Positions 13,035 to 30,147 of a stretch of 40,078 nucleotides of DNA are shown piece by piece. A program made the position numbers and the translations under genes. The notes beneath the pieces are model-generated. The model was not told the DNA's origin, did not search any database, and saw only the letters and a program-made list of their open reading frames with translations. Where the stretch lies: contig CAMNFV010000005.1 of assembly GCA_946537515.1 (NCBI GenBank), positions 1 to 40,078 of the forward strand, in the 5' to 3' direction. The DNA is from an uncultured Ruminococcus sp. GTDB lineage: Bacteria > Bacillota > Clostridia > Oscillospirales > Ruminococcaceae. How positions within the stretch are numbered: position 1 is the stretch's first letter; each line of letters opens with the position of its first letter.

Positions 13035-13046
13035 TTAGATCGGATA

Positions 13047-13085
13047 GGATATGCCTTCTTAGAGTGATCTTTAAGAAGGCTATCC
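13047..13085 (+). other. Strong intergenic hairpin after pilO
   Basis: GGATATGCCTTCTTA (13047-13061) pairs with TAAGAAGGC-TATCC (13072-13085), a 14-bp stem with one bulge and a 10-base loop. No T tract follows. It sits 23 bases before the giant pseudopilin gene. Confidence 0.65.
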
Positions 13086-13108
13086 GCAGTTGAGAAAGGT
13101 GGTTTCTA

Positions 13109-16100
13109 ATGAAAAAAATCAGGAGGAAAGGAAAGGCAGAAGGTTCCGTTCTGTTTACCGTTGTCACCGTGATGATGGTAATGGTCGTGTTCCTGATGTC
13201 TACGCTGGTTCTTACGACATCAGCAAACCGCCGTTCGTATTACACATTCTATGAGAATCAGGCACAGTATACGGCGCAGGGTGTTCTGGATGCGATCCTC
13301 ACAGCAGCAAACGATCCCGATCCCAGTAATGTGGAGAGTGCGAATTTCTATCACTGGGTGCAGGGTCTGTCTAATGTAGGCGATGTTGGCACGATTGATG
13401 TTCAGCTGAATATTGATGATACATCAAAGGCGTTTATTCCGCTGACAAGGCACTCAAACGGTGACAGTGCGGTCACAGCTACGGTTGAGCGTATCGGCGC
13501 GAACTACATCTGGGATGCAGAATCCGCATCTGTTTGCGAGCAGGGCGGCTGGAAAATTACTGTTACTGCTTCCGTAGGTCAGGGCAGAAATGCTTCTGAG
13601 TATACGATGGCGAGCTACATTTATGAAAACCCGGTTAATAATGTTAACACAGGTGCCGTCAATGATGCTGCATGGAACGTTATCAATTCGTTCAATGTTA
13701 CACCGGGCAGCACGACTATCATCGACCCCGGCTCCGGTTCGAGCAATAAGGCGAAAGCAATGTACATGGGCGGCCTCAGTAATGACGCTGCCAGCAATAA
13801 CCTTCTCTGCCTTGGACCGCAGACATACGGTATCCGCAGACTGCCTGCCGGCAGAGGCAACTATGCAAATGAAGCCGTAGTCGGCTTCCGCAACAATCCG
13901 CAGACAGTCGGCGACGGCCTCTTTATCGGAAACTTTGAAGCAAACTGCGCGACATCCTTTGTTGCACAGAGACCTGGCGAGGGCGTTCAGTTCTGGGGCA
14001 ACATCTATGCACAGAACATGTTTGAATTCCGTTCTGAAATCAATGATTCCAGCTATCCGACAGAATACAGATTCATTCCGTATCTGTATGTTGACGGTAA
14101 TCTTCATTTCAACGGTGATACCGGTCAGGAGATTGGTATGTCGGGCACGCCGAACGACACGCCCCAGCCGGTCAATCTGTATGTTGGTTCGATGACCAAT
14201 ATCGCGCAGCATATGAACGGCGATATTTACATGTATGACCCAGCTGCTTCTTCCAATCTTGAAAATGGCCGTAAGACAACGCTCTCAACTTTTGTTAGAA
14301 ATAATGTCCAGAAGACTAACTATACTCCAAGAGGCTTCGTCGGCGGCGATGTCATCTGCAACAATAGTGCGCTGACGATTGCCGGTGCTGTATCGGAAAT
14401 TGGCGGTGACGTCATTATGACGAATCCGGACGGAAAACTCACAATCAGATTGCAGAATGAGGATCTTACGATCAGAGGCGCGCTTCTTTGTGCCGGCGAT
14501 CTTGAGATCAATACAGGCAATAAATCACTGACCGTTCTCGGCGGTATTTATTCAACTGCTTCCAAAACGACTATTAACGGTAGAGTCAATGGCGTAACAA
14601 GCGGCTCGCTTTCTGAAATTTGTGATGCGACCAAGAATATGGAGGCATATCTTACTGCTCAGACGTTTGTAGGCGATGACGGTGTTGAGAGATTACAGTA
14701 TATTCAGAATACCTCTACATCCGCACATTTTGAAAGCCTCGGCGGCAGAGGCGCTGACGGTACCGGCTACGATGATCTTGTCAGCAAGCTTCTGTCTGGT
14801 AATCTTGGCGCGCAGAGCGGCTCTGACTACTATACACTCACCAATAACTCCGGCCGTGATTACAGTATGTTCCCGTTCTGCAGCAGACAGGATGAGATCT
14901 TTACGCATTATTTCCGCTGGGATCTTGCAGCAGATTCTGCAGAAGCAGCTTCTGCAAATTGCGATAATGATCCGCTCTGCCAGGAGAGTAAAGCCTGCGG
15001 TCATGAGTGGCGCGTAACGCAGAAGGCCAGCGACGCTGCGACAAAGTGGGTTCCGTATACAGTTCCGAAGGCAGCTTCGGCTGTAGTTGAATCGCTTGAT
15101 CCGAATTCGGTTATGCTGAACAACAATAACAGCTTTATCCCGATGCTTGAGACAAGTCAGGGCTCTCCGATCGCTGCAAATGAATACATTAATACTGTTG
15201 GCGATTTTACAAGTGGTGCAAATTGTACTGCTGTAAATATTAAGGATATCCCGACGAAAAATGTTACATTTATTTCTCATTCGGCTAACGGTACAGCAGT
15301 ACCGACAACGCTGAACTCGGTTCCGGTTGTAACATCGAATACTGATATTGATCTGACGTGCAATGACGTGGATTATACGATCTTTGTCGATCCGCCTCAG
15401 CGCAACAGCCAAATCCGTATTGTTCTGAGAGGCCGCTTTATGAACAGGGCTTTGAACATCATTGTTAACAATAACTGCTCGTATGAATCCGGCGGCGGCG
15501 GTGCTGATTATTCAAAGCCGACGACCTATGCCGACTCCTCACACAGTACAGGCAACCCTAGCTTTGCTGGCAGAAGTAATGTTCTGATCTTCTTTGATTC
15601 GAGCATTTACGTGAATAAGGGCCTGAATATTATGACAACCGGCGCTTATCAGCAGCTGATGAAGGATCATACTTATGATATCATCAGTAATCCGCTTTAT
15701 CCCGGCACGATGGACGCAAACGGCAATCTGGTTCTCAATGGCGAGTGGGATGCACTCTATCCCGGTGCGGATGCATTCAAGTTTGAGCTGATTCCGAATA
15801 TTGTCATCTACGGTGAAAAAGATTTCAACTATAACGGTTCTTTCCAGAACGGTTTTGTTGCAAACGCTGAGTTTATTGCTCCGGATTCCGACTTTGGCTC
15901 TGCGATTAGTGAACCGAATGTTACATCGCTTGAGTATCGCGAATTTACTGAGTCGGTCAAGTACAATCCGTATGCAAACACGAACAATAAGCCGAATTCT
16001 TCCGGTATCATGACAATGGGCACAATGCTTGTCCGCGATCTCAAGGGCTATACAAACCTGCCGATCTGTGTCTACCTCGGTGACCTGAACAGACCTTCTA

Positions 16101-16219
16101 GACAGAGTACTACGGCTCCGACTGTAACTGCGAATGACAACAGTCTTGGCAACCAAGGCGGTGCAACCGCAGGATCCAGAAAAGACCGATTCGGTAAGGA
16201 TCACCAGGGCGCGCGCTGA
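13109..16219 (+). CDS. Giant tip-type (PilX/GspK-like) pseudopilin with a beta-helical ectodomain
   Basis: The 1036-residue protein begins with a positively charged leader, a Gly at residue 12 and one hydrophobic helix (13-38). This is the form of PilX/GspK-type pseudopilins. The residue at +5 from the possible cleavage site is Thr instead of the usual Glu, as in tip subunits of the GspK class. A QAQYTAQGVLDAIL helix follows (51-64). The ectodomain is Asn, Gly and Thr-rich. About 325-500 has repeated short strands with G-D-V/L-x-I patterns, which suggests a beta-helix reminiscent of bactofilin-like folds. The tail (about 1000-1036) is polar and probably disordered. Its size is several times that of normal minor pilins. 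A role as tip adhesin, perhaps for fibre, is inference. AAAGGTGG precedes the start. Confidence 0.72.
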   Translation: MKKIRRKGKAEGSVLFTVVTVMMVMVVFLMSTLVLTTSANRRSYYTFYENQAQYTAQGVLDAILTAANDPDPSNVESANFYHWVQGLSNVGDVGTIDVQLNIDDTSKAFIPLTRHSNGDSAVTATVERIGANYIWDAESASVCEQGGWKITVTASVGQGRNASEYTMASYIYENPVNNVNTGAVNDAAWNVINSFNVTPGSTTIIDPGSGSSNKAKAMYMGGLSNDAASNNLLCLGPQTYGIRRLPAGRGNYANEAVVGFRNNPQTVGDGLFIGNFEANCATSFVAQRPGEGVQFWGNIYAQNMFEFRSEINDSSYPTEYRFIPYLYVDGNLHFNGDTGQEIGMSGTPNDTPQPVNLYVGSMTNIAQHMNGDIYMYDPAASSNLENGRKTTLSTFVRNNVQKTNYTPRGFVGGDVICNNSALTIAGAVSEIGGDVIMTNPDGKLTIRLQNEDLTIRGALLCAGDLEINTGNKSLTVLGGIYSTASKTTINGRVNGVTSGSLSEICDATKNMEAYLTAQTFVGDDGVERLQYIQNTSTSAHFESLGGRGADGTGYDDLVSKLLSGNLGAQSGSDYYTLTNNSGRDYSMFPFCSRQDEIFTHYFRWDLAADSAEAASANCDNDPLCQESKACGHEWRVTQKASDAATKWVPYTVPKAASAVVESLDPNSVMLNNNNSFIPMLETSQGSPIAANEYINTVGDFTSGANCTAVNIKDIPTKNVTFISHSANGTAVPTTLNSVPVVTSNTDIDLTCNDVDYTIFVDPPQRNSQIRIVLRGRFMNRALNIIVNNNCSYESGGGGADYSKPTTYADSSHSTGNPSFAGRSNVLIFFDSSIYVNKGLNIMTTGAYQQLMKDHTYDIISNPLYPGTMDANGNLVLNGEWDALYPGADAFKFELIPNIVIYGEKDFNYNGSFQNGFVANAEFIAPDSDFGSAISEPNVTSLEYREFTESVKYNPYANTNNKPNSSGIMTMGTMLVRDLKGYTNLPICVYLGDLNRPSRQSTTAPTVTANDNSLGNQGGATAGSRKDRFGKDHQGAR

Positions 16220-16236
16220 TGAGAAGGAGGATCGAA

Positions 16237-17313
16237 ATGAAAACGAAACGGAAACTCAAAGGCATGACGCTGATGGAGGTTGTCGTTTCTCTCGCTGTTT
16301 ACGCCGTCATTGGTCTGCTGATTGCAGAGATCATGACGCTTGTAAATGCAACGATGAAAGCGACAAATCAGCTGAATCGACGCTTGAGCTACGAGGCGAA
16401 ATTTGCTGATAACTTTCTCTATAATGACGGCGTAGACCCAGGCGGTTTTGATCATACAGGAGTACATGTTACGCTGAGTGATTCTGGTGGACATTTTAAT
16501 CTTACTTCACCTGGCATGGTTTTTACGACGAATACGAAAAGCATGGAAAATCCTGAACATAATCTCATTATCAACCCCAATACAAATTATCGGTTTCTTG
16601 TTTTCACAAGAAGCGGTTCAACCGTTCAGACGACGATTCCCGTCTTTTATGTCCACCTGAATCTCGGCACTTCTCTCTCATCGAATCCGATTACGAAGAT
16701 TATTGTTGAGGGCGAAGGTGTTCCCAATTTCGGCGGCACATACGAAATCGGTCGTGTAGATGGTCCCTTATATTCGAAGCAGATTCTGACCGATTTTAAT
16801 GCAATGGCGCATCATCCAGGTAGAGATGTTTCCAATGCTTCCTTCGATGTTAAGGATACGACTGAGATTGAGCACGATCTTCAGAATCTGGAATCCATTA
16901 CAAGCGGCGAAATTGTGACGATCCCGGTTCCTGCTGCTGATGCACAGGGTCATGCAATTCTGCCTCCGGCTGATCCGAATGATCCGGATGCGGAACATGC
17001 TCAGGTTAAGGGACATCTCGTAGTCAAGATTTACCGTACCATCGCGGATCAGACTGGTAAGGAGTATAACTGGTATACCAGGAAGGATTGGGAGACGATC
17101 AGTATTGGATATCCGAATCCGAATGATCCTCTAGTCGATGGTCATGGATTCCCGGCAGCTGCAACACTGACTCTTGATTTCGTGCTTTCGGCTGAGAATC
17201 CGAATACCGGAGTGCGTTCTTTCTTCCCTGGTGTCACTTACGTATGGAATCCGAACCTGGATCCGACGAATCCTGATTACCTTGTAGTAGAGGAGTCCGT
17301 GGCTGCGAACTAA
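16237..17313 (+). CDS. Large minor pilin (prepilin), homologue of the tail at 26175
   Basis: The 358-residue prepilin has a class III signal, KLKG-MTLMEVVVSLAVY, with cleavage after Gly9 and Glu at +5, then a hydrophobic helix to about residue 35. The C-terminal ectodomain is beta-rich and unusually large. Residues from about 140 to the end have a clear homologue in the frameshifted tail of the GH5 gene at 26175-26741; shared blocks include NPITKII, a TIADQTGKEYNWY-like block, NGFPA/HGFPA and Y-x-WNP. AAGGAGG precedes the ATG at 16237. It lies 17 bases after the giant pseudopilin gene. It probably joins the minor-pilin tip complex. Confidence 0.83.
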   Translation: MKTKRKLKGMTLMEVVVSLAVYAVIGLLIAEIMTLVNATMKATNQLNRRLSYEAKFADNFLYNDGVDPGGFDHTGVHVTLSDSGGHFNLTSPGMVFTTNTKSMENPEHNLIINPNTNYRFLVFTRSGSTVQTTIPVFYVHLNLGTSLSSNPITKIIVEGEGVPNFGGTYEIGRVDGPLYSKQILTDFNAMAHHPGRDVSNASFDVKDTTEIEHDLQNLESITSGEIVTIPVPAADAQGHAILPPADPNDPDAEHAQVKGHLVVKIYRTIADQTGKEYNWYTRKDWETISIGYPNPNDPLVDGHGFPAAATLTLDFVLSAENPNTGVRSFFPGVTYVWNPNLDPTNPDYLVVEESVAAN

Positions 17314-17327
17314 AACTGAACCGAAAT

Positions 17328-17359
17328 TTCCGCTGCGTGCAATGCAGCGCGCAGCGGAA
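17328..17359 (+). other. Strong intergenic hairpin between the two minor pilin genes
   Basis: TTCCGCTGCG (17328-17337) pairs with CGCAGCGGAA (17350-17359) around a 12-base loop. There is no T tract. It is the third such hairpin between genes of this operon. Confidence 0.65.
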
Positions 17360-17389
17360 TAAATGATTATGAAAGGAGTGTCATTTACA

Positions 17390-18529
17390 ATGAAAAAGCT
17401 GAAAGGCTTTACGTTGCTTGAGCTTATAATTGTTATGGCAATATTCTCTATTATCATGTACAGCGCGGTTCAGTTGCTGAATCCGGTTTCAAAGTTCTTT
17501 GTCAGAAGCTCGAACTTTGAAAACACAACCGCTTGTACTGATAATATGCGGCGCTGCATTGAAGGCAACCTTAAATATGCTGACCGTGTTCGCGCTTATA
17601 ACAAGTATCAGCCTTATACAGGCAACCCCAGTACGCCCTCGGCAGATTTGCTGTCGAAAGTACAGTCTTTTTACACACAGTTCTTTAAAGACCGCAGATT
17701 TATTGATTCCAGCGGAGTCATCAATGTGCTTGTATTTGATAATACGGTTCTGCGGGCTGATATCAGCGGCATGAATCAGATCAGCGAGTATACAGGTGCT
17801 GAGCTGAACCGCGGTAAAATCATTCTCTATCGTTTCGAGTTTGATAATTACGACGGCGATGATGAGACGACAGTTATCAATAATATGCTCACGCCGACAA
17901 TCTGGTGCGTGAATCAGAAGCTCTACGGTAATTTCGATTACACGTTTACGCTGAATGATCCGAGCGTCATTTCTGAATCAATCATCAGCGCAAATGCTGA
18001 TCCGTTTGTTACAACTGGTTCGGATGAAACTACGCGGATGGTATATTCCGGTACGGACGTAAACGGCAGCGATGTTTATACTCCGTATGTCCCGGTTGTT
18101 TTCAATCCGCGCGATTTTAATATCGGCATTGCAGTTCAGGAAATTAGACGAGTTCCCGGAGGCGGCCTGGAAAGAGCAACTCCGACAACGAGTATCGTTG
18201 CTTCGTTCTCGATGAAAAATGTTCTGAATTCAGCTGACGGTTATAAGACTGCCGGTGTTGACTATGTTCCGACACTTGGTTATGGCGATGAGCATGGCGA
18301 TCATGCATATCAGGTCAATCCGAAAAGAGCACAAGGACAGATGATTCCGCGCTATACCGGTATTGATGAGAATATCGGTTCGGATCAGTTCGACGGCTTC
18401 TACTTTATCTTTACGCTGCCTGAGGAAGTGCATGATGTTGCAGATGGTGCACATTATGATGATGCATTTTTGAATCGGCAGGTAACAATGCCGACCGGAA
18501 GCTCCAGCTCCAGCTCCAGCTCCACTTAA
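17390..18529 (+). CDS. Second large minor pilin (prepilin) with poly-Ser tail
   Basis: The 379-residue prepilin has MKKLKG-FTLLELIIVMAIF with cleavage after Gly6 and Glu at +5, followed by a helix to about residue 28. The ectodomain shows no family I can name. It ends in an eight-serine run plus threonine, encoded by alternating AGC/TCC codons. The start at 17390 has AAAGGAG at a proper distance; the in-frame ATG at 17363 lies only a few bases after the upstream hairpin and lacks a ribosome site. It is probably the last gene of the pilC operon, since a terminator-like hairpin follows. Confidence 0.83.
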   Translation: MKKLKGFTLLELIIVMAIFSIIMYSAVQLLNPVSKFFVRSSNFENTTACTDNMRRCIEGNLKYADRVRAYNKYQPYTGNPSTPSADLLSKVQSFYTQFFKDRRFIDSSGVINVLVFDNTVLRADISGMNQISEYTGAELNRGKIILYRFEFDNYDGDDETTVINNMLTPTIWCVNQKLYGNFDYTFTLNDPSVISESIISANADPFVTTGSDETTRMVYSGTDVNGSDVYTPYVPVVFNPRDFNIGIAVQEIRRVPGGGLERATPTTSIVASFSMKNVLNSADGYKTAGVDYVPTLGYGDEHGDHAYQVNPKRAQGQMIPRYTGIDENIGSDQFDGFYFIFTLPEEVHDVADGAHYDDAFLNRQVTMPTGSSSSSSSST

Positions 18530-18550
18530 ACGTAAAATCAGAATCAATGT

Positions 18551-18597
18551 ATAGAAAATGGCAGCCGGTGTTGCCGCCGGCTGCCCTCTATACTGCA
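18551..18597. terminator. Terminator between the pilC operon and the convergent peptidase gene
   Basis: GGCAGCCGG (18560-18568) pairs with CCGGCTGCC (18577-18585). Outer TATAG and CTATA can extend the stem. A real T tract is missing, so termination may be only partial. Confidence 0.6.
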
Positions 18598-18603
18598 AAT
18601 TAT

Positions 18604-19506
18604 TCAATGCATCAGCATTGCGGTGTAATACTGAACAGTTTCTTCATGCGGCAGCATCTTGATGTACCACATGGTAATCTCTTCGCCGAACATTGCACCG
18701 ATCCAGAGGCCCATGCAAAGATAAGGGCCGAATGCGAATTTTGATTTGCCGGTTACCTTTTTAATAATGAGACCGAAGATTGCAGCAAGAATAATACCGA
18801 TGAACGCGGAAGGAATCATGGCCTTCCAGCCGATCAGCGCTCCGGCACATGCCATCAGGATTGTGTCGCCGAGTTCAATTCCGCGGACCTTTTCACCGGT
18901 TTTCTTCTTGATGTAAGCACCGCTGATCTCACCGATCAGCAGGAACGGAATACTGATCACAAAAATGCCGATGATGCGTTCCTTCAGCGGAATGTATGTC
19001 AGGAAGTGCGAGGGGATTGCCAGAACGGCGATCAGCAGCAGCATCGGGATGTACATGTCCATCGTGTCCCAGTCAATGAATCCGATGCAGATCAGCAGCG
19101 ATGTGAAGAGCATCATGATCACGCAGTTGACATTGACACCGAAGATCAGCAGATCCACTACATAGAGAATGCCGTTGAGCGCTTCTACGATCGGATACCG
19201 GGGGGAGATCTTCTCTCCGCAGCTGTGACATTTTCCTTTGAGGAAAAGCCAGCTGAAAACCGGGATCAGATCAATGATCCGGATTTTGGCACCACAGGTC
19301 ATACAATGAGAAGAGCGCTTGATGAGGGATTCGCCGCGCGGCACCCGGATGATGACAACATTCAGGAAGCTGCCGATGCAAATGCCGTAGATGAAGACAA
19401 CGGGAATCGCCAGAAGCAGAAATTTTGCAAGGTCACTTTCATAATACTGCCATTCCCGCCATCCGGTTTGTGCTGCCAGAGCAGCAAGCAAGTTTTTTTG
19501 GTACAT
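18604..19506 (-). CDS. Prepilin peptidase (PilD-like)
   Basis: The 300-residue polytopic membrane protein is an aspartic protease that cuts and usually N-methylates prepilins. It has the family start GSFLNVVIIRVPRGES (45-60), the two CxxC pairs of the cytoplasmic zinc loop (C68/C71 and C93/C96), and catalytic aspartates in FIDWD (145/147) and in ELGD (D214). The second motif departs from the usual GxGD: the first glycine is Glu. About eight hydrophobic segments are visible. It sits on the opposite strand inside the pilus cluster, with AAAGGAGG before the ATG and its own promoter. It is the only processing enzyme seen for the five prepilin-like genes here. Confidence 0.92.
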   Translation of the reverse strand: MYQKNLLAALAAQTGWREWQYYESDLAKFLLLAIPVVFIYGICIGSFLNVVIIRVPRGESLIKRSSHCMTCGAKIRIIDLIPVFSWLFLKGKCHSCGEKISPRYPIVEALNGILYVVDLLIFGVNVNCVIMMLFTSLLICIGFIDWDTMDMYIPMLLLIAVLAIPSHFLTYIPLKERIIGIFVISIPFLLIGEISGAYIKKKTGEKVRGIELGDTILMACAGALIGWKAMIPSAFIGIILAAIFGLIIKKVTGKSKFAFGPYLCMGLWIGAMFGEEITMWYIKMLPHEETVQYYTAMLMH

Positions 19507-19541
19507 AACGGTACCTCCTTTATGGTTTGTACTGTTATTCT

Positions 19542-19570
19542 ATTCTACCACAGATTGGCATATTTTTCAA
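19542..19570 (-). promoter_or_regulatory. Promoter of the prepilin peptidase
   Basis: On the minus strand TTGAAA (19570-19565), 17 bases and TAGAAT (19547-19542). It lies in the 85-base gap to the divergent pilB gene, whose own promoter is not clear. Confidence 0.65.
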
Positions 19571-19591
19571 GAGTTTTTTGGAGGTTGGATT

Positions 19592-21253
19592 ATGAGAAAC
19601 ATCCGCATCGGTGACTACCTCGTCGAGGAAGGTCACATCACCCCTGAGCAGCTGCAGCAAGTTCTGCAGAGACAGCGCGAATCGACGGACCAGAAGAAAT
19701 TTGGTGAAGTCATTGTCGAGATGGGATTTATGTCCGACATCAAATTTGCGCAGGCTTTGTCAGTCAAGCTGCAAACACCGTTTGTTGACCTGAACAACGT
19801 CGAGGTTGACGGTGAGATCGCCCGCATGGTTCCTCAGGATCTTGCAGAACGTAACTGCGTTATCGCGATCAATAAGACCGGACGCCGTCTGACTGTTGCA
19901 ACGGATGATCCTGTTAACTTCAATATTCTTGAAGATATCAAGGTCAAGACCGGTTATGACTGCATTCCGGTTCTTGCAACCCGTTCCGCGATCAAGAAGG
20001 CAATCGGTAAAGCATATCAGATGACCGACCTCGGTGACCTCGGTATTGACTCGTCTCAGGGCGAGATGATGGATGATGAAGAATCCAGAGACCGTGTTGA
20101 GAGCGCCCCGATCGTTAAGCTCGCAACACAGATCGTTGAGAATGCTTTCCGTATGGAAGCAACGGATATTCACCTGGAGCCGTTTGAGAAGTATACACAG
20201 ATCCGTGTTCGTGTCAACGGCGACCTCGTCGTCCTGATGAATGTTTCTTCCAACGTCCAGAATCAGCTCGCTACCCGTCTGAAGCTGATCTCCGGTATGA
20301 ACATCGCAGAAAAGCGTATCCCGCAGGACGGCCGTTTCACCCAGACAGTTGACGGCATCCCGCTTGACCTCCGTGTTTCCTCGCTGCCGATGGTTCACGG
20401 TGAAAAGATCGTTCTCCGAATTCTGTCTACCGGCGCAATCAAAACGCGTGGTCTGCACGAACTCGGTATGTCCGATTATAACTTCCGCCTGTTCGAGAGC
20501 ATGATCAAGTGCCCGCACGGCGTTATCCTCGTTACCGGCCCGACCGGTTCCGGTAAGTCCACCACGCTGTATGCAGCGCTCGGTGCTATTGCAAGACCGG
20601 AAGTCAACGTCGTTACCGTTGAGGACCCGGTTGAAAAGCAGATCGAAGGCATCAACCAGTGCCAGATCAATGTTAAGTCCGGTATGACCTTCCCGGCGGC
20701 GCTTCGTTCGATTCTCCGTCAGGACCCGGATATCATCATGATCGGTGAGATGCGTGACGGCGAGACCGCTGAAATCGGTATCCGCGCCGCTATCACCGGC
20801 CACCTGGTTCTTTCCACGCTCCATACCAACGACGCAGCTTCGACAATCGTTCGTCTGGTCGATATGGGTATTCCGTCTTACATGGTTGCTTCCTCGCTGA
20901 TCGGCGTTGTCGCACAGCGTCTCGTTAAGGTTCTCTGCCCGAAGTGCAGAAAGCAGAGAATGTCTACACCGGAAGAGAATGAGCTGATGCACCTCGATCA
21001 CTCTGTACCGATCTACGATGCAGTCGGCTGTAATGAGTGCGGCGGCGGCTATCGCGGACGTACTGCTATTCACGAGATCATTCATTGCTCCGGCGACATC
21101 TCTACGCTGATCGCGAACGGCGCAAGCTCTGATGAACTCGAAAAGACTGCACGTGCCAACGGCACCAAGCTCCTCCGTGATAACGTTGCTGACCTCGTTC
21201 AGCAGGGTGTTACTACGATGGATGAGCTGATTCGTGTAACATACACGGTATAA
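19592..21253 (+). CDS. Pilus extension ATPase PilB
   Basis: The 553-residue cytoplasmic motor powers pilin polymerisation. It has an N-terminal GspE/MshEN-type domain (about 1-145; IRIGDYLVEEGHITPEQL, then a second region). The secretion ATPase core follows: Walker A GPTGSGKST (316-324), the Asp box around 340-346, Walker B DPDIIMIGEMRD (378-389), the His box TGHLVLSTLHTND (402-414) and the zinc-binding CxxC pairs (449/452 and 480/483). MshEN domains can bind c-di-GMP in some bacteria; whether this one does is open. TTGGAGG precedes the start. pilT follows after 31 bases and is probably co-transcribed. Confidence 0.95.
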   Translation: MRNIRIGDYLVEEGHITPEQLQQVLQRQRESTDQKKFGEVIVEMGFMSDIKFAQALSVKLQTPFVDLNNVEVDGEIARMVPQDLAERNCVIAINKTGRRLTVATDDPVNFNILEDIKVKTGYDCIPVLATRSAIKKAIGKAYQMTDLGDLGIDSSQGEMMDDEESRDRVESAPIVKLATQIVENAFRMEATDIHLEPFEKYTQIRVRVNGDLVVLMNVSSNVQNQLATRLKLISGMNIAEKRIPQDGRFTQTVDGIPLDLRVSSLPMVHGEKIVLRILSTGAIKTRGLHELGMSDYNFRLFESMIKCPHGVILVTGPTGSGKSTTLYAALGAIARPEVNVVTVEDPVEKQIEGINQCQINVKSGMTFPAALRSILRQDPDIIMIGEMRDGETAEIGIRAAITGHLVLSTLHTNDAASTIVRLVDMGIPSYMVASSLIGVVAQRLVKVLCPKCRKQRMSTPEENELMHLDHSVPIYDAVGCNECGGGYRGRTAIHEIIHCSGDISTLIANGASSDELEKTARANGTKLLRDNVADLVQQGVTTMDELIRVTYTV

Positions 21254-21284
21254 TCCTGAAACAGGAAGAAACGGAGGAATTACC

Positions 21285-22394
21285 ATGCCCATTATTTCAG
21301 TGAATAAAATCCTGGACGACGTCCGTGCGCTCGGATGCTCCGACCTTCATTTTACGGTCGGTATCAACCCGGTTGTTCGTCTGCACGGCCAGCTCCGCAA
21401 AATGAGCAGCTATCCCGAAATGACTGACGAAATGATCGCTGAGATCGTTGAGCAGATGACCAACGAACAGCAGCGTAAAAAGGTTACCCAGCGCATCGAC
21501 GTTGACTTCTCTTATGTCACCCGCGCCGGCTACCGTCACCGCTGCAACATCTTCTATCAGAGAGATCATCTCGCAGTTGCAATTCGTCTTCTGCGTAATG
21601 ACATCCCGACGCTGGACGATCTGTTCATGCCGCCGATCATGTCCGAATTCGCAATGCGTCCGCGTGGCCTTGTCCTCATCACCGGCCCGACCGGTTCCGG
21701 TAAGTCCACTACGCTCGCAGGTATGATCGACTATGTCAACTGCAACAAGTCCGCTCATGTTATCACAATCGAAGACCCGATCGAGTATGTCCACGAGCAC
21801 AAGCGCTGCATGGTCAACCAGCGTGAAGTCGGCGCTGATGTCCCGAGCTTCGCAATGGCGCTGAGAGCAGCACTTCGTGAAGACCCGGACGTTATCCTCG
21901 TCGGTGAGATGCGTGACTTCGAGACCATCCAGGCTGCAATTACAGCGGCTGAAACCGGTCACCTTGTTTTCTCCACGCTTCATACTACATCTGCGCCTGA
22001 TACGATCAACCGTATCATCGACGTGTACCCGGAGCACCAGCAGAACCAGATCCGCGCTCAGCTCGCGAACGTTCTCGTCGGCGTTGTCTCGCAGACGCTG
22101 CTGCCGCTCAAGAACGGTACCGGCCGTATCGCTGCAATGGAAATCCTGAACGTCACAGACGCTGTTTCTGCGATGATTCGTGAGGGTAAGATCCACCTGA
22201 TCCTCAGCTCGATCCAGGCAGGTAAGGCACACGGCATGATGTCCCTCGACCAGGAGCTCGCACGTCTGGTCAAGAACAACACGGTCAACGAAATCGACGC
22301 ACTCGAAAAGTGCCAGGACAAGACCGAGTTCTATCGTTACCTCACCGCTATGGGCGGCCAGTCTGTCATCACCCGCGAGGGCGTGATCGGTTAA
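21285..22394 (+). CDS. Pilus retraction ATPase PilT
   Basis: The 369-residue protein is the retraction motor of the T4P, so these pili should be dynamic. It has the PilT N-terminal PAS-like part (SDLHFTVGINPVVRLHG), Walker A GPTGSGKST (134-142), the Asp box EDPIEYVH, Walker B DPDVILVGEMRD and the His box TGHLVFSTLHT. The usual AIRNLIREG element near the C-terminus appears as AVSAMIREGK. A GGAGG ribosome site precedes it. A strong terminator ends the pilB-pilT unit. Confidence 0.95.
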   Translation: MPIISVNKILDDVRALGCSDLHFTVGINPVVRLHGQLRKMSSYPEMTDEMIAEIVEQMTNEQQRKKVTQRIDVDFSYVTRAGYRHRCNIFYQRDHLAVAIRLLRNDIPTLDDLFMPPIMSEFAMRPRGLVLITGPTGSGKSTTLAGMIDYVNCNKSAHVITIEDPIEYVHEHKRCMVNQREVGADVPSFAMALRAALREDPDVILVGEMRDFETIQAAITAAETGHLVFSTLHTTSAPDTINRIIDVYPEHQQNQIRAQLANVLVGVVSQTLLPLKNGTGRIAAMEILNVTDAVSAMIREGKIHLILSSIQAGKAHGMMSLDQELARLVKNNTVNEIDALEKCQDKTEFYRYLTAMGGQSVITREGVIG

Positions 22395-22408
22395 TTACCT
22401 ATGCTCTG

Positions 22409-22454
22409 AAAAGCCGCGGAACCGGACCTCAAAAACCGGTTCTGCGGCTTTCAT
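22409..22454 (+). terminator. Terminator of the pilB-pilT unit
   Basis: AAAGCCGC-G-GAACCGG pairs with CCGGTTC-T-GCGGCTTT, a 15-bp stem with one mismatch, followed by TCATTATTT. Confidence 0.8.
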
Positions 22455-22636
22455 TATTTATGTCAAATCTTGCGGTGCTCTTGTTTTTTTATTCAATGAT
22501 TGCGGCGAACTCTGCTAGAATGTTACACGACTGTTACCGAATTTGTGCACAATGCTGAAAACGAAACCTGATTTATGGCCAAAAAATCGAGATTCGTAAA
22601 AGTTTGTTCACAATTCAGAAATATTGCGGAAAAGAC

Positions 22637-22665
22637 TTGACATTTCCTTTTGGATGTGTTATACT
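22637..22665 (+). promoter_or_regulatory. Promoter of the major pilin
   Basis: TTGACA (22637-22642) and TATACT (22660-22665) with a 17-base spacer. The separate strong promoter allows far more pilin than assembly machinery. Confidence 0.8.
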
Positions 22666-22725
22666 AAGACCATAGAGAACGACAGACGATGTCAGACGTC
22701 GCATCGGGCTGTTACTCTGGAATCC

Positions 22726-22742
22726 GCAATCAAAATGATTGC
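22726..22742 (+). other. Leader hairpin before the major pilin
   Basis: GCAATC-AAAAT-GATTGC is a perfect 6-bp hairpin in the 105-base leader, which also holds CGATG/CATCG pairing near 22688-22706. No riboswitch signature is recognised. Confidence 0.4.
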
Positions 22743-22775
22743 AACATGTTTACAATCTTGAGGAGGTTATTTATC

Positions 22776-23258
22776 ATGAAAAAGAAAGGTTTTACCCTGA
22801 TTGAGCTGATCGTTGTTATCGCGATCATCGGCGTTCTGGCAGCTATCCTCGTTCCGGCTATGCTCGGTTACGTGAGAAAGTCCAAGATCACCACCGCTAA
22901 CACCACCGCGAAGTCTATCTACAACGCATTCAACACTGCGCTGGTTGACCTCGATACCATTGATGCTAGTGTTTCTTTCGGCTCTACCACTTACAGCGGC
23001 TCTGATTTCTCCGCTTCTGCTTCCGGCCTTGAGGGTTCCGTTTATGGTTACTTCTCTGATGTAGCTAAGGTTTCTTCCTTCTATGTTAAGGAAACTGACG
23101 GTGCTTGTGTTGGCTGCGGCGTTCTCGCTGGTAAGTATCCGGGTGCATATCCGAATCCGTGGACTGTTGATGCATACAAGTCTGCTACTTCTAAGCCGTC
23201 TACTGCTCAGGCTGCATTTGATAACGCTCCGGCTCCGGCTTCTAGCAGCAACTCCTAA
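22776..23258 (+). CDS. Major type IV pilin PilA1
   Basis: The 160-residue prepilin has the signal MKKKG-FTLIELIVVIAIIG with cleavage after Gly5 and Glu at +5, and the conserved helix running into LVPAMLGYVRKSKITTAN. The globular head has many Ser, Ala and Tyr residues and a Cys pair in CVGCG. It ends in an Ala/Pro/Ser tail. The length and short head are typical of major pilins. AGGAGG lies before the ATG at 22776. It shares the N-terminal 40 residues almost completely with the next gene. Tandem pilA1/pilA2 genes are known in Ruminococcus albus, where a pilin protein takes part in cellulose adhesion. Confidence 0.93.
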   Translation: MKKKGFTLIELIVVIAIIGVLAAILVPAMLGYVRKSKITTANTTAKSIYNAFNTALVDLDTIDASVSFGSTTYSGSDFSASASGLEGSVYGYFSDVAKVSSFYVKETDGACVGCGVLAGKYPGAYPNPWTVDAYKSATSKPSTAQAAFDNAPAPASSSNS

Positions 23259-23281
23259 TTTGTAATTACTGATTGATTGTA

Positions 23282-23328
23282 ATTCAGAAAACTGAATGAA
23301 CGAATGCCCCCTATCTTGGGGGCATTCG
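23282..23328 (+). terminator. Two adjacent perfect hairpins after pilA1
   Basis: ATTCAG-AAAA-CTGAAT (23282-23297) is followed by an 11-bp perfect stem, CGAATGCCCCC (23301-23311) with its complement (23318-23328). The second lacks a T tract, so it may attenuate or stabilise rather than fully terminate, letting some transcripts reach the second pilin. Confidence 0.6.
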
Positions 23329-23416
23329 CTGTATCATGACAGCTGTGACAAATAAAATTGACAATTTGAAATATCTTTTATTGATATGGGTGTTTTTTGA
23401 CTGAGAGGAAACTGGA

Positions 23417-23998
23417 ATGAAAAGAAAAGGCTTTACATTGATCGAGCTGGTCGTAGTCATCGCGATTATTGGTATTCTCGCTGCGATTCTCGTACCCGCG
23501 ATGCTCGGCTATGTGCGCCGTTCAAAGATCACAACGGCGAATAATGCTGCAAAGTCCGTTTACAATGCAATCAATGTTGCGATGGTGGAAATGGAGGCCT
23601 ATGACCTTCCGCCGCAGCAGCTTGAGAATCGCGATATCACGACAACCGGTGCTACGATTTATGCACAGAAGGATACCGCAATGCCGAACGGTCCGACAAG
23701 TGATTATAATACGCTGCTGAATACGCTCTATGCAAAGGTTTGCAGCTATTTTTCGGATGTCGGCAAGCTTCAGGATATCTCGTTCCGTCTGCGCGAATCC
23801 GGCTGCATCGGCGTCGGCGTTGTCAACGGCAGATATCCCGGAACCTATCCGCTGGCGATCACCGTGGATGATTATAAGCAGCGCAGAAATGCCTGGACTT
23901 CTACGAATGCACTCGCATTCGCGCTGAAAGATCCCGAGAGCACAACAATTCCGGATACACCGCCTGCAATGGGTGAAGAAGGCGGCGGAAACGGCTGA
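23417..23998 (+). CDS. Second type IV pilin PilA2
   Basis: The 193-residue prepilin has MKRKG-FTLIELVVVIAIIG and the same LVPAMLGYVRRSKITTAN helix as PilA1. The head is longer and different, but a block near the C-terminus is shared (CIGVGVVNGRYPGTYP, versus CVGCGVLAGKYPGAYP). The tail is Gly/Glu-rich. GAGAGGAAA precedes the start. A TTGACA at 23358 could be the -35 of a separate promoter, but no good -10 lies at the right distance. Expression may depend partly on read-through of the hairpins behind pilA1. Confidence 0.9.
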   Translation: MKRKGFTLIELVVVIAIIGILAAILVPAMLGYVRRSKITTANNAAKSVYNAINVAMVEMEAYDLPPQQLENRDITTTGATIYAQKDTAMPNGPTSDYNTLLNTLYAKVCSYFSDVGKLQDISFRLRESGCIGVGVVNGRYPGTYPLAITVDDYKQRRNAWTSTNALAFALKDPESTTIPDTPPAMGEEGGGNG

Positions 23999-24117: not shown

Positions 24118-25962
24118 TTACGGTTTCAGCTCTTCTTCTGTGATGAGCTTTGCAATATACTTCAGAATCTTGAGCGTACAGTCAGAATTGATAGATGCTC
24201 CGCCTGCAACATTTGCGTTCAGTTTTCCGTTCGCCGTGATGTTCGCTTCCGAATCTTCAGCAACAAAGCGGCTGACAAGAACAGCATCGGAAACATCCAC
24301 AACGCCGTCTTCATTCGCGTCGCCCCATTTGATTTGCCTGGCAGGCGTTGTGCTTTCAGAGCTTGTGGTTGTAGGCTTTGTGGTTTCGCTTGTTGTGACT
24401 GTCGTAACGGTCGTCGTCGTTGTTGTCGTGGTTTCGGAGGTGGGCTTTGTCGTTTCAGAGCTGGGCTTTGTCGTTTCGGTATTGCGCGGAACCGTAATGT
24501 CAACTTTGTTGCCCTTGTTGCCCTTCGAGCCGCCGTCGAGATTGCTGCTTTCGCCGGAAGCATAATACTCGGAGAGCGAGATGCCGTTTTTGCCGAGCGC
24601 GACCTGATGATCGAGGCCGATGTATTTGCCGGAAGCGGTCTGCCAAAGTGCCTTCTCAAAGAGACCGTATTTATCATCATCCCAGGTGATTGTTGTGCCG
24701 GAACCCTGCTGGAAGCCGAGGCCTTTCCAGAGTCCGCCGGTGTCACCGGAGTTTGTATTCAGGCACCAGAAGGTGTGGTTGATATGATTCTTGATCATAT
24801 AGTCACGCAGCAGCGTCATCCATTTGAGGTTATCGCCTTCCATGTGACCGCCCCATTCGCCGATCAGCAGGGGAGCGATGTTCTCTTCATTGATAAATGC
24901 CCATGTATCGCGCCAGTAATCATCGAGGAGCGTTTCCTCGGTAAAGTTCTTGTCAAACCATGTCTGTGCGTAGACGGACGGGCCGTAATCGTGCGGAGAA
25001 TAGACAATCTGGCTGGTTCCGTGCTTGGGCTTGATCGGATACTCGCGGGCGCCGCGGAAGTTGCCGCCCCACCATGCACCGATATACGGCGAATTGTCGC
25101 GTCTGTCGGGCATTCCCCAATAGTCGCCTTCCATTGCACCGCTGAGCGATTGCTCTACGCCTTCGATCAGGATCAGCGCGTTCGGATTGACATCCAGGAT
25201 TGCATCTGCGCATTTTGTTGCGGCATATGCCCAGTTGTTTTCATCGGTCGAGCCGTCCCATTTTGCTGCATCTTTTCCTTCCTGACCTTTTCCGTGCGGC
25301 TCATTTTTGAGGTCGAAAGCGAGCAGCGTATCATCATTCTTATATTTGTCTGCAAGCCAGACAAGTGTGTCGATCCAGACATCTGTGGTGACGCCTGCCT
25401 TACCGTACCAGAGGTTGTAGTTGTGGCCTGAGTTGTCTGTATGCGGGCTGTGAATATCAATAAACGCCTTGATACCGTACTTTTTGCACTTCTGCATGAT
25501 GATGTCAAAGATCTCCATGCTGTTTTTGAGCGTCTTGCCGTCCGATTCACAGAAATCCGGGTTGATTGTGAATGCGGGATCAGCATTTGCTGAGACACTG
25601 TTGACCGGATTCGGCTTTCCGGCCTTCCAGGAAACGAGCAGTTCTGTTGCGATTGGGAAGCGGATGATGTTAATGCCGTGATCTGCTACACTTTTCAGGA
25701 CATCGTCAACATCGGCGCTCCAGAGATAGTGGACGCAGTTCTCCGAGCAGTTGAAGCCGAACCAGTTTGCACCGGTCAGCCAGACTTCGTTGCCGTCTTT
25801 GTCATAGATACGGCTGCCTTCGCAATGAAGCCAGTCGTCATTGGTGTCGTCAGCCGCATAGACCGCGGCCGGCGCTTTGAGACTGCCGCCCGCTAAGCCG
25901 ATCGTGCCGGTTGCGGCGACAAGTGCTGCCAGACAAATTGACAGCAGATGCTTGTTTTTCAT
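24118..25962 (-). CDS. GH5 endoglucanase with C-terminal dockerin
   Basis: This 614-residue secreted cellulase has a signal peptide (1-36), a GH5 catalytic barrel (about 42-470), a Thr/Ser/Lys linker (477-543) and a dockerin (544-614). The opening GANWFGFNCSENCVHYLWS resembles the GH5_1 subfamily of Acidothermus E1. The acid/base is E221 in FDLKNEPHG and the nucleophile E369 in LLIGEWGGHM. The first dockerin loop is intact (DANEDGVVDVSD). The second reads NVAGGASINSDC and has lost most calcium ligands. It is a close paralogue of the GH5 gene upstream at 26729-28777. GAGGGGAAA precedes the ATG, and a folded leader lies between it and the upstream hairpin. No clear promoter is visible, so read-through from the upstream GH5 gene is possible. 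Confidence 0.92.
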   Translation of the reverse strand: MKNKHLLSICLAALVAATGTIGLAGGSLKAPAAVYAADDTNDDWLHCEGSRIYDKDGNEVWLTGANWFGFNCSENCVHYLWSADVDDVLKSVADHGINIIRFPIATELLVSWKAGKPNPVNSVSANADPAFTINPDFCESDGKTLKNSMEIFDIIMQKCKKYGIKAFIDIHSPHTDNSGHNYNLWYGKAGVTTDVWIDTLVWLADKYKNDDTLLAFDLKNEPHGKGQEGKDAAKWDGSTDENNWAYAATKCADAILDVNPNALILIEGVEQSLSGAMEGDYWGMPDRRDNSPYIGAWWGGNFRGAREYPIKPKHGTSQIVYSPHDYGPSVYAQTWFDKNFTEETLLDDYWRDTWAFINEENIAPLLIGEWGGHMEGDNLKWMTLLRDYMIKNHINHTFWCLNTNSGDTGGLWKGLGFQQGSGTTITWDDDKYGLFEKALWQTASGKYIGLDHQVALGKNGISLSEYYASGESSNLDGGSKGNKGNKVDITVPRNTETTKPSSETTKPTSETTTTTTTTVTTVTTSETTKPTTTSSESTTPARQIKWGDANEDGVVDVSDAVLVSRFVAEDSEANITANGKLNANVAGGASINSDCTLKILKYIAKLITEEELKP

Positions 25963-26174: not shown

Positions 26175-26732
26175 TTAATGGAAGTTTCCCGGTTCATCGA
26201 AGCGCGGCATGGTTCTGTTTCCAAGTCCGCCCTCGCGAACGGAGATTTCGTTGGTCTCCGGATTCCAGATGTAATCAATCTCTTCCGGGTAGCTGACTTC
26301 CAGGGTCTCCGGATTGACATTTCTGGTTACAAAATCCAGGTCTATCACGGCGCTGGCCGGAAAACCATTCTCATCGGTTTTGTCAGACTGACCGGCATAG
26401 ACCGGTGCCAGACGGGATACATCATCTTTTTGATACCAGTAATATGTATTGCCGTCCTTATCTGCAATCGAAGAGAACAGCAACAGCTTGAGCGCTCCCT
26501 TTGTCGGTTCATTTGCGGGCATTGCGGGATTCAGTTCGATCGGAACACAAATCGTCAGCAGCTTGCCGCCGGAGACAGAACGCTCCGGAAGGTCAGCATC
26601 CTGAATAACAGGGCTGAGGCTTGAAGAAACATCCTTCGATGCGATCGTCTGTGCATGAATGATATTACCCGAATGTGAACCGATCGGGTAGGCATCGCCG
26701 CGAATGATGATCTTCGTGATCGGATCATTCAG
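26175..26732 (-). pseudogene. Minor-pilin-like C-terminal domain, out of frame with the upstream GH5-dockerin gene
   Basis: On the minus strand 185 codons are open directly after the A9 tract, in the -1 frame relative to the GH5 gene. The translation matches the C-terminal part of the minor pilin at 16237-17313: LNDPITKIIIRG against SNPITKIIVEG, SIADKDGNTYYWYQKDD against TIADQTGKEYNWYTRKD, NGFPASAVIDLDFV against HGFPAAATLTLDFV, DYIWNPE against TYVWNPN. The homology seems to start before the frameshift, in the last residues of the GH5 frame (YFTVNLYL against YVHLNL). There is no prepilin signal and no ribosome site of its own. It is therefore a decayed in-frame fusion or the product of a frameshift; with a shift the combined protein would be 867 residues. 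Confidence 0.75.
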
Positions 26733-28777
26733 TTTTTTTTTACGTCATCCAGATACAGATTGACAGTGAAATAATCCTTCGGTGCTTTCTGTGCTGCCTG
26801 TGGAGGTGCAAGTTCCTCTTCGGTAATCAGTTTTGCGATATACTTCAGGATCTTGATCGTGCAGTCGGAGTTAATTGTTGCGCCGCCGGCTACATTTGCA
26901 TTCGATTTACCCTGCTGCTTGATCACAGCTTCGCTGTCTTCTGCGACAAAGCGAGCAACCAGAACTGCATCCGAGACATCGACTTTGCCGTCTTCGTTCG
27001 CATCGCCCCACTTGATTTTCCCGTTTGCGGGATTGTCAGCCGAGCCCTTGGAGCTTTCCGGCGTTGTGACGGTTGTGGTTGTTGTCGTAGGTTTCGTCTG
27101 CGAAGAGGTGGTTGTAGAGGTTGCAGTCTGCGAAGATGTAGTCGAGGTGCTGGTGCTTGTTGTCGCAGAGCTTGTGGTTGTTTCAGACGCGGTAGATTTG
27201 GTCGGCGTGGTTTCAACGATCTTGCCGGAGGAAGTCTTGCCGCCGTCGAGGTTTGAGCCCTCGCTTGCGGACGCACCGGAATAGAATTCGTTGAGCGAAA
27301 GACCGTTCTTGCCGAGTGCGGTCTGGTGATCAAGACCGATGTACTTGCCGGACTTGGTCTGCCAGAGCGATTCTTCAAAGAGGCCGTACTTTGCGGCATC
27401 CCAGCTTGCGAACTGCGTATCAAGCAGGCCGCCGGTATCGCCGGAGTTCGGATTGATGCACCAGAATGTGTGGCTGATGTGGTGATTGATCATGTAATCA
27501 CGCAGCAGCTCCATCCACTTCTGGTTCTTGCCCTTATCCATATGGCCGCCCCATTCGCCGATCAGCAGGGGCGCGATGTTGTCTTCATTGATATATGCCC
27601 ATGTTTCGCGCCAGTAATCATCGAGCAGCGTTTCGGTAGTGAAATCCTTGTCGAACCATGTCTGCGCGTAAACAGAAGGGCCGTAGTCATGCGGCGAATA
27701 GACGATCTGACCGGATTCCGGCAGAATGGGCAGGGTTTTGACGCCGCGGAGATTGCCGCCCCACCATGCGCCGTACCACTTTTCCTCACCGGGCTGCGGA
27801 TTGAATTTATCCGGCGTTTCCCATGTGACGCCCTTATCGAGCATCGGGGACTGTTCAATGCCCTCAACGAGGATCAGTGCGTGCGGATTGACTTTGAGGA
27901 TTGACTTTGCGCATTCCTCAGCGGAATATTTCCAGTTGTTCTTATCAGTGGAATTATCCCACTTTGCGATACCTGCCGGACATTCGCTGCCGTCGTAGCC
28001 GCGCTTGCCGTGAGGCTCATTTTTGAGGTCATAGGCGAGGATGGTATCATCGTTGGCGTATTTCTTCGCGAGCCATGTGATGGAATCCTTCCAGTCGTCC
28101 CATGTGATCTGCTTCTTGGAGAAGTGACCGGTCGCCATGCCGCCGCAGTCTTCCGCAGTCGGCTCATAATACCAGAGTGTGTAGTTATGACCGGAATTAT
28201 GAGATGCAGGGCTGTGAACGTCGATCAGCGCCTTGACGCCGTATTTTTTGCACTTCTGCATGATGATATCAAAGATCTGCATACTGTCCTTGAGCGTTTT
28301 GCCGTCCTCAAGAACGAAGTCGCGGTTGATATTGCCGTATTTGCCGGCAGGTGTGACGGTTCCGTCCTCACCGATTTCGTCCTGCGGCGGATTATAGCTC
28401 GCCTGCACGGAGCTGACCGGCAGCGGTTCGCCGTCCATCCACGAGAGCAGCAGCTCTGTGGAAATCGGGAAACGGATGATATTGATGCCGTGATTTGCGA
28501 TATCGGAAACCATGTCATCGACATCTCTTGCATAGAGACCGTGCGGCACGTTTTCGGTACAGTTCATGCCGAACCAGTTTGCACCGGTGAGCCAGACCTC
28601 ATTGCCGTTCACGTCGTAAAGACGGCTGCCGACGGCGTGGAGCCAGTCGTCATTTCCGTCGTCTGCCGCTGCTGCCGGAATGGAGCCGTTAAGTGTTTTC
28701 GCGAACGGCATTCCAGCGGCAGAAGTTACGGCCATCAGGGCTGCCAGCGAGGCTGACAGCAGGACCTTGTGCTTCAT
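26729..28777 (-). CDS. GH5 endoglucanase with dockerin and short pilin-like extension
   Basis: This secreted cellulase has 682 residues in the unshifted frame: a signal peptide (1-38), the GH5 barrel (about 42-500), a Ser/Thr linker (about 510-586), a dockerin (about 588-656) and an extension of 26 residues. The acid/base is E254 in YDLKNEPHG and the nucleophile E408 in LLIGEWGGHM. Compared with its paralogue at 24118 it has insertions near 130-150 and 205-225. The first dockerin loop is intact (DANEDGKVDVSD), the second degenerate (NVAGGATINSDC). After TEEEL, where the paralogue stops, the chain continues for over 20 residues that already resemble the minor pilin, then ends at TGA beside a slippery A tract. 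The start at 28777 has GAGGGGGAG; the open frame to 28870 is leader sequence. Confidence 0.9.
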   Translation of the reverse strand: MKHKVLLSASLAALMAVTSAAGMPFAKTLNGSIPAAAADDGNDDWLHAVGSRLYDVNGNEVWLTGANWFGMNCTENVPHGLYARDVDDMVSDIANHGINIIRFPISTELLLSWMDGEPLPVSSVQASYNPPQDEIGEDGTVTPAGKYGNINRDFVLEDGKTLKDSMQIFDIIMQKCKKYGVKALIDVHSPASHNSGHNYTLWYYEPTAEDCGGMATGHFSKKQITWDDWKDSITWLAKKYANDDTILAYDLKNEPHGKRGYDGSECPAGIAKWDNSTDKNNWKYSAEECAKSILKVNPHALILVEGIEQSPMLDKGVTWETPDKFNPQPGEEKWYGAWWGGNLRGVKTLPILPESGQIVYSPHDYGPSVYAQTWFDKDFTTETLLDDYWRETWAYINEDNIAPLLIGEWGGHMDKGKNQKWMELLRDYMINHHISHTFWCINPNSGDTGGLLDTQFASWDAAKYGLFEESLWQTKSGKYIGLDHQTALGKNGLSLNEFYSGASASEGSNLDGGKTSSGKIVETTPTKSTASETTTSSATTSTSTSTTSSQTATSTTTSSQTKPTTTTTTVTTPESSKGSADNPANGKIKWGDANEDGKVDVSDAVLVARFVAEDSEAVIKQQGKSNANVAGGATINSDCTIKILKYIAKLITEEELAPPQAAQKAPKDYFTVNLYLDDVKKN
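26733..26741 (-). other. A9 tract with A-AAA-AAC slippery heptamer next to a stop
   Basis: In the GH5 frame the codons are GTA AAA AAA AAC TGA. The last seven bases before the stop are A-AAA-AAC, a canonical -1 slippery form. A -1 shift or one extra A joins the frame to the pilin-like domain. A 6-bp stem (ATGATC with GATCAT) begins directly after the stop; it is a weak stimulator. Runs of nine A are also prone to transcriptional and replication slippage, and to sequencing error. Confidence 0.7.
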
Positions 28778-30112: not shown

Positions 30113-30118
30113 TGTTGG

Positions 30119-30147
30119 ATTATATCAAAACAGGCTTGGTCGCACAA
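30119..30147 (-). promoter_or_regulatory. Promoter of the 6S-like RNA
   Basis: On the minus strand TTGTGC (30147-30142), 17 bases and TATAAT (30124-30119). Upstream, AATTCACAA with TTGTGAATT (30240-30208) forms a 9-bp hairpin right behind the DUF1292 gene and may end that transcript. Confidence 0.65.

What the first reader, a model, noticed from the sequence alone, without database searches (positions are those of the whole stretch)
26175..28777. GH5-dockerin cellulase joined to a minor-pilin domain through an A-AAA-AAC slippery site
The zero frame of the GH5 gene ends GTA AAA AAA AAC TGA. The -1 frame is then open for 185 codons that match the C-terminal part of the minor pilin at 16237-17313 in several blocks. 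The match seems to begin before the stop (YFTVNLYL), which argues for an original in-frame fusion. Either the A9 tract suffered a -1 event, or frameshifting or transcriptional slippage yields two products: a 682-residue free cellulosomal enzyme and an 867-residue enzyme carrying a pilus-type domain. The second would put a cellulase in contact with the type IV pilus encoded next door. I know of no description of such a fusion.
Basis: partly seen in the sequence, partly recalled or inferred. Interest (0 to 1): 0.9.

Follow-up and report, generated by a model that had tools for sequence, protein, structure and literature searches.

The report
Frameshifted cellulase tail shared with pilus
A gut bacterium's cellulose-cutting enzyme probably comes in two lengths made by a slip of the reading frame, the longer one carrying a module that the same cells also put on a pilus protein; sister species put comparable modules on other fibre-degrading proteins and on a likely sensor.

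Summary
The GH5-dockerin gene (28777-26729, minus strand) ends GTA AAA AAA AAC TGA; the -1 frame is open for 185 more codons that match the C-terminal module of the minor pilin about 9 kb away. Sequencing error alone does not explain it: two sister species have the same junction with only six A (TCA AAA AAC TGA) and a 10-bp RNA stem 7 nt downstream. A third has the fusion in frame (A10).

Best reading: -1 recoding gives a dockerin enzyme without and one with the module. In the window's A9 tract this may be ribosomal frameshifting, transcriptional slippage or both.

The pilus-tether idea is weaker. The tail lacks the pilin helix. Elsewhere in the genus, pilin-type modules occur on a GH5, a GH11-dockerin protein, LRR-dockerin proteins, other dockerin proteins and a membrane protein beside an ECF-like sigma gene: the distribution of a ligand-binding (CBM-like) module. 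Pilus and cellulosome probably share a binding module.

Not shown: any frameshift product, ligand or fold match. The window clade's module type and the other type are not proven homologous. The A9 count was not checked on reads.

The parts
26729..28777 (-). GH5-dockerin endoglucanase, zero frame, 682 aa (short product)
   Evidence: PF00150 E 2.8e-44; best solved chains CelE2 and endocellulase E1
27443..28615 (-). GH5 catalytic domain (residues 55-445)
   Evidence: Pfam PF00150
26822..27007 (-). dockerin-like region (about residues 591-652); end set by eye
   Evidence: PF00404 16.8 bits, below cut-off 22.9, residues 591-615 only
26732..26773 (-). first strand of the pilin-type module, still in the zero frame (YFTVNLYLDDVKKN)
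   Evidence: compared by eye with VFYVHLNL of the minor pilin
26733..26741 (-). A9 tract
26732..26738 (-). slippery heptamer A AAA AAC in phase, followed by zero-frame TGA 26729-26731
   Evidence: no in-phase A AAA AAN outside this tract in the 682 codons
26702..26730 (-). predicted RNA stem-loop directly after the slippery site (spacer 1 nt)
   Evidence: -8.4 kcal/mol; 75 nt downstream z -2.31, 6 of 102 gene windows as low; weak
26175..26732 (-). -1 frame tail, 185 codons plus stop: C-terminal module of minor-pilin type
16219..17313 (+). minor pilin with the same C-terminal module
   Evidence: N_methyl PF07963 E 0.01, 15.8 bits, below its cut-off 21.2; prepilin-type N-terminus by reading
24118..25962 (-). 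paralogous GH5-dockerin gene without tail
10420..23998 (.). type IV pilus locus: PilM (10420-12081, +), another pilin-type protein (17363-18529, +); prepilin peptidase, PilB/PilT ATPases and two small pilins assigned from recall by reading the homologous loci
   Evidence: PF11104 and PF07963; ORF order; homologous ORFs

Best explanation
A -1 recoding event at A-AAA-AAC lets part of the expression of a cellulosomal GH5 endoglucanase run past its stop and adds a 185-222 residue module of the kind carried by the minor pilin. Shown: the junction, the open tail, the same frame change in three species, an in-frame fusion in a fourth, an RNA stem at the usual spacing in two. Inferred: the ribosome slips (AAA AAC re-paired as AAA AAA), helped in the window by RNA polymerase slippage on A9; most product is the dockerin enzyme alone and a fraction carries the module; the module binds the same ligand, probably a plant cell-wall polysaccharide, on the pilus and on the enzyme.
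For: The same stop, heptamer and -1 tail occur in G017 and G026 with only six A. G020 has the fusion in frame. No stop in the tail in 4 of 4 genomes; simulated chance at most 0.0012 each. Tail dN/dS 0.315-0.553 in 5 of 6 pairs, the sixth not computable. G017 and G026: 10-bp stem 7 nt after the heptamer; 75 nt downstream z -3.77 (1 of 105 gene windows as low) and -3.40 (7 of 106). Between -48 and +135 they differ at one base, in the stem, and the pair is kept as G-U. 81 eligible codons in a row without synonymous change span the site, 0 of 20000 permutations. A9 slippage of about 16% each way is published for IS1447 in C. thermocellum (PMC6211511, passages). Module distribution.
Against: No product was observed. 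A AAA AAC is a weaker shift site than A AAA AAG in E. coli (PMC5009743, passages). No Shine-Dalgarno-like stimulator stands out: 34 to 96 positions per gene were as good. The window's stem starts 1 nt after the site; G020 has no stem. In G017/G026 four outer pairs can extend the stem to within 3 nt of the site (fold). G017 has one other in-phase A AAA AAA, at codon index 237. Synonymous suppression is seen only in the closest pair, not in the other five; its length could reflect recombination, and a second run of 30 codons exists. dS is near saturation in distant pairs. The module's first strand lies before the stop, so the short product keeps an orphan strand, which suits a tolerated indel better than a designed two-product gene. 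No carbohydrate binding is known, no Pfam family reached its cut-off for the tail, and no PDB fold matched at E <= 0.001.
Confidence: 0.6

Rival explanations
1. Tolerated indel: an in-frame fusion lost one A in an ancestor, and slippage at the site rescues enough full-length protein. The short product is a by-product.
For: The module's first strand lies upstream of the stop, so the break is inside the domain. G020 is in frame. Frameshifting that corrects 'savior' indels is named in the abstract of PMC5009743 (seen in the listings).
Against: Stop and heptamer are kept in phase in lineages with near-saturated synonymous divergence. In G017/G026 the tract is six A with a stem at the usual spacing.
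Confidence: 0.2
2. Phase variation: A9/A10 length changes by slipped-strand replication switch the module off and on between cells.
For: Window A9 (off) against G020 A10 (on) at the same place. Homopolymer slippage in genes for surface proteins is a known kind (PMC3711429, passages).
Against: G017 and G026 have only six A, a length I would not expect to be hypervariable.
Confidence: 0.1
3. Assembly or sequencing error in the window's A tract; the gene is a simple in-frame fusion there.
For: The genome is a 294-contig assembly; A9 is the longest A/T run in the window; G020 is in frame.
Against: The same arrangement in two other assemblies without a long homopolymer.
Confidence: 0.15
4. The tail docks the enzyme onto the type IV pilus.
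For: Sequence match to the minor pilin of the neighbouring pilus locus. In G009 and G016 the modules on enzymes group with their own genome's pilin.
Against: No pilin helix in the tail. The other module type also occurs on LRR, GH11 and dockerin proteins and an anti-sigma-like protein.
Confidence: 0.15
5. The tail is a separate gene translated by re-initiation.
For: The zero-frame stop and the tail frame overlap.
Against: The first ATG, GTG or TTG in the tail frame is the 71st, 65th and 46th codon in the window, G017 and G026; no signal peptide could precede the module.
Confidence: 0.03

Closest known systems
dnaX (tau/gamma), including the reversed arrangement
   Same: One gene, -1 shift on an A-rich heptamer, two products differing by a C-terminal region; in some bacteria the long product seems to be the shifted one (PMC5009743, passages)
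   Different: Here a secreted cellulosomal enzyme and a module; roles differ between sister species (G020 in frame)
Saccharolobus solfataricus fucA alpha-L-fucosidase
   Same: Glycoside hydrolase gene with a -1 shift at A-AAA-AAT and a putative stem-loop (PMC8037382, passages)
   Different: Archaeal; there the shift makes the enzyme itself and two-product use was argued against; here it adds a C-terminal module
IS1447 of Clostridium thermocellum
   Same: A9 tract that slips both ways at about 16% in a cellulolytic clostridium (PMC6211511, passages)
   Different: Transposase, +1 transcriptional slippage productive; two sister species here have six A, below the seven found necessary there
Modular minor pilins PilB/PilC of Streptococcus sanguinis
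   Same: Extra module grafted on the C-terminus of a minor pilin (PMC9934059, passages)
   Different: vWA and lectin folds there; here an unassigned module also found on enzymes
RsgI anti-sigma factors of C. thermocellum
   Same: Membrane protein beside a sigma gene with an extracytoplasmic sensory module (PMC6056542, passages)
   Different: L132 pairs with an ECF-like sigma (by reading), not SigI; Pfam found no domain in it

Membership tests
-1 programmed ribosomal frameshift genes | In-phase X XXY YYZ heptamer at the frame change | tested here: met
   A AAA AAC in the window, G017 and G026; A AAA AAG in G020, where the zero frame is already the fusion
-1 programmed ribosomal frameshift genes | Stimulatory downstream RNA structure at about 5-9 nt (spacing recalled) | tested here: inconclusive
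   7 nt in G017 and G026; window stem at 1 nt, z -2.31; none in G020, z 0.04
-1 programmed ribosomal frameshift genes | Frame change conserved across species | tested here: met
   3 of 4 tail-bearing genomes among 30 searched; fewer than the five fs-genes asked for a cluster in PMC3711429 (passage)
-1 programmed ribosomal frameshift genes | Both products made | not testable with these tools
   needs proteomics or reporters
transcriptional slippage genes | Run of about 7-9 or more A or T | tested here: inconclusive
   A9 in the window, A10 in G020; only A6 in G017 and G026
type IV pilin | N-terminal prepilin signal and hydrophobic helix | tested here: not met
   The tail holds only the C-terminal module
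carbohydrate-binding module | Matches a known CBM family | tested here: not met
   Pfam gave the tail only one match, SipA_VBS, 16.6 bits, below its cut-off 20.3; CBM databases other than Pfam were not searched
carbohydrate-binding module | Binds carbohydrate | not testable with these tools
   binding assay needed
GH5 cellulase | PF00150 domain | tested here: met
   E 2.8e-44
type I dockerin | Two calcium-binding repeats above the Pfam cut-off | tested here: inconclusive
   16.8 bits against 22.9; residues 591-615 only

The most novel reading that the evidence does not exclude
A cellulosomal bacterium uses programmed frameshifting to set how many copies of a cellulase carry the same ligand-binding module that its type IV pilus displays. 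Sister species place pilin-type modules on a GH5, a GH11, LRR-dockerin proteins and a sigma/anti-sigma sensor, so adhesion, digestion and sensing share one target-recognition module.
Probability: 0.35. Interest if true: 0.88.

Novelty: new variant of a known kind. Interest (0 to 1): 0.72.

Why it matters
From recall, few bacterial cellular genes outside replication and mobile elements are known to use -1 recoding for a C-terminal extension. My literature searches showed none for a cellulosomal enzyme, but they are open-licence papers and only part of each result list was shown: 2 of 2 papers; 15 of 172; 8 of 155. A module shared between a pilus subunit and cellulosomal proteins would give a concrete molecular link for the reported role of type IV pili in cellulose adhesion by Ruminococcus (PMC3672088, passages). 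It can be tested with one purified domain and one reporter.

Tried and rejected
Tail profile A2 in 396 family genomes (126 genera): 1 of 396, the own genome; the draw did not hold the three tail-bearing relatives. GTDB contig scan: 3 loci, the same three relatives. Viral contigs: none. Profile A5 of the other module type in 396 family genomes: 5 of 396, all of the same genus. Profile A1 in 30 genus genomes: only the four pilins and four tails. Foldseek on the G020 tail model (pLDDT 74.6): 0 matches at E <= 0.001. Minor pilin model too poor to use. Profile comparison of the two module types: probability 1.1% and 0.4%, so their homology is not established; they share their place in orthologous minor pilins. 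Shine-Dalgarno stimulator: none that stands out. The tree of tails and pilin modules does not settle whether there was one capture or several; G020's tail joins G020's own pilin weakly (82/85). Nucleotide gap lengths in the tail alignment include values that are not multiples of three; at this divergence I take that alignment as unreliable and make no claim from it. The terminator scan found no minus-strand site, so I claim no terminator. In one search the G020 stretch was not centred on its slip site and is not used.

Full report
What is there. The window is one whole contig of a dockerin-rich genome: 294 contigs, 142 dockerin matches. A GH5-dockerin gene runs on the minus strand from 28777 to 26729 and ends GTA AAA AAA AAC TGA. 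The -1 frame is then open for 185 codons to 26175. It matches the C-terminal part of the minor pilin at 16219-17313, about 9 kb away (39% identity over about 110 residues, E 1.4e-13; alignment). The similarity starts before the stop (by eye), so the frame changes inside the module. A paralogous GH5-dockerin gene next door has no tail.

Not only a sequencing error. In 30 genomes of the genus, the own one included, the tail is found in 4: window, G017, G020, G026. G017 and G026 end GAC AAC TCA AAA AAC TGA, six A only, with the tail in the -1 frame. G020 has A10 followed by GCTGACTGA and reads straight through as an 857-residue fusion. The window's own A count was not checked on reads.

Signs of selection. 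The tail has no stop in 4 of 4 genomes; first-order Markov sequences of the same make-up have none in at most 0.12% of 5000 trials each. Tail dN/dS is 0.315-0.553 in 5 of 6 pairs, the sixth not computable, with dS near saturation in distant pairs; the minor pilin gives 0.21-0.40. In the three frameshifted genes the first start codon in the tail frame is the 71st, 65th and 46th codon. AAAAAACTGA occurs 26 times on both strands of the 3.09-Mb genome, the reversed control 4 times, so the motif itself is not rare; its place is what counts.

Signal. G017 and G026 have a 10-bp stem beginning 7 nt after the heptamer; in the 75-nt fold four more outer pairs bring it to 3 nt. The 75 nt downstream have z -3.77 (1 of 105 gene windows as low) and -3.40 (7 of 106); the window has -2.31 (6 of 102) with a stem after 1 nt; G020 has 0.04 (69 of 100). 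Between G017 and G026, 130 of 755 eligible codons carry a synonymous change, but none in 81 consecutive eligible codons around the site, 0 of 20000 permutations. Between -48 and +135 the single base difference falls in the stem and leaves a G-U pair. Against this: the other five pairs show no such suppression, the run is longer than a shift signal needs, a second run of 30 codons exists, and recombination could also make it.

Mechanism. In G017/G026 six A is below the seven found necessary for slippage in IS1447 (PMC6211511, passages), so ribosomal -1 shifting is the better reading there. In the window A9 allows both. G020 needs no shift for the long product; a -1 shift or loss of one A there would give a short one. 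None of this was observed as a product.

What the tail is. The GH5 gene is present in 29 of 30 genus genomes at E <= 1e-60. I read the ends of the 30 places for which loci were returned, L027-L056, not of the remaining matched places: 4 carry the tail, 1 (G016) carries a module between GH5 and dockerin, and by eye 25 end near the dockerin, with no tail seen in the first 90 residues of the other two frames. The G016 insert is 46.5% identical to residues 144-373 of its own minor pilin, E 6e-58 in a small database.

Other carriers. A profile of minor-pilin modules of other species (A5: 11 pilins and the G009 GH11 carrier) matched 15 of 30 genus genomes. Besides pilins it hits a GH11-dockerin protein (G009; GH11 E 1.3e-15), LRR proteins with a dockerin (G001, G002, G006, G016), dockerin proteins without a recognised enzyme domain (G000, G001, G006, G016, G017, G020) and a G009 membrane protein directly downstream of an ECF-like sigma gene (sigma and anti-sigma by reading). 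Pfam was run on 7 of these 12 carriers besides the G016 GH5 and its split neighbour: dockerin passed its cut-off in L097, L129, L134 and L136, fell below it in L128 and L133, and L132 had no domain; L130, L131, L135, L137 and L138 were judged by resemblance. The matches of G006:C36 and G001:C31 are short and weak (E 4.7e-4 and 6.1e-4), but these proteins resemble G016:C79 along the module.

Kinship. In a tree of 24 modules both G009 carriers group with the G009 pilin (100/99) and the G016 GH5 module with the G016/G002 pilins (96/96); the LRR and the two dockerin groups stand apart. So pilins and enzymes exchanged cognate modules at least twice outside the window clade; the direction is not shown. 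The tail's type (A1) and this type (A5) are not shown to be homologous.

Interpretation. Enzymes, LRR proteins, a sensor-like protein and a pilus subunit are the usual homes of a ligand-binding module, so I favour a shared binding module over a pilus tether. This is inference: no ligand, no fold match, no Pfam family above its cut-off for the tail. Precedents for each element exist: dnaX, archaeal fucA, IS1447, modular pilins, RsgI. The combination was not seen in the listings (15 of 16 papers shown; 2 of 2; 8 of 163; 15 of 172; 8 of 155), which cover open-licence PMC papers only.

Noticed in passing
L132 1403-3474 (G009:C18): ECF-like sigma gene overlapping a TM protein with an extracellular pilin-type module about 55% identical to its own minor pilin's module: a candidate substrate or surface sensor.
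   Followed up: partly
L098 13319-15062 (G016:C91): Beside the module-bearing GH5, a secreted-type gene with the same kind of module and a dockerin is split by a frame change without an obvious slippery site; pseudogene, error or recoding undecided.
   Followed up: partly
L128-L131 (G001, G002, G016, G006): Large BspA-type LRR proteins that end in a pilin-type module and a dockerin, a group of their own in the module tree.
   Followed up: partly
L134 1083-2429 (G000:C32): The window's own genome has another dockerin protein with a module of the other (A5) type.
   Followed up: partly
window 29970-30158 (-): 6S RNA by Rfam, 56.8 bits.
   Followed up: no
window 13109-16219 (+): 1036-residue protein in the pilus operon with an N-terminal hydrophobic stretch and no Pfam family at E <= 0.1; possible large minor pilin or tip protein.
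   Followed up: no
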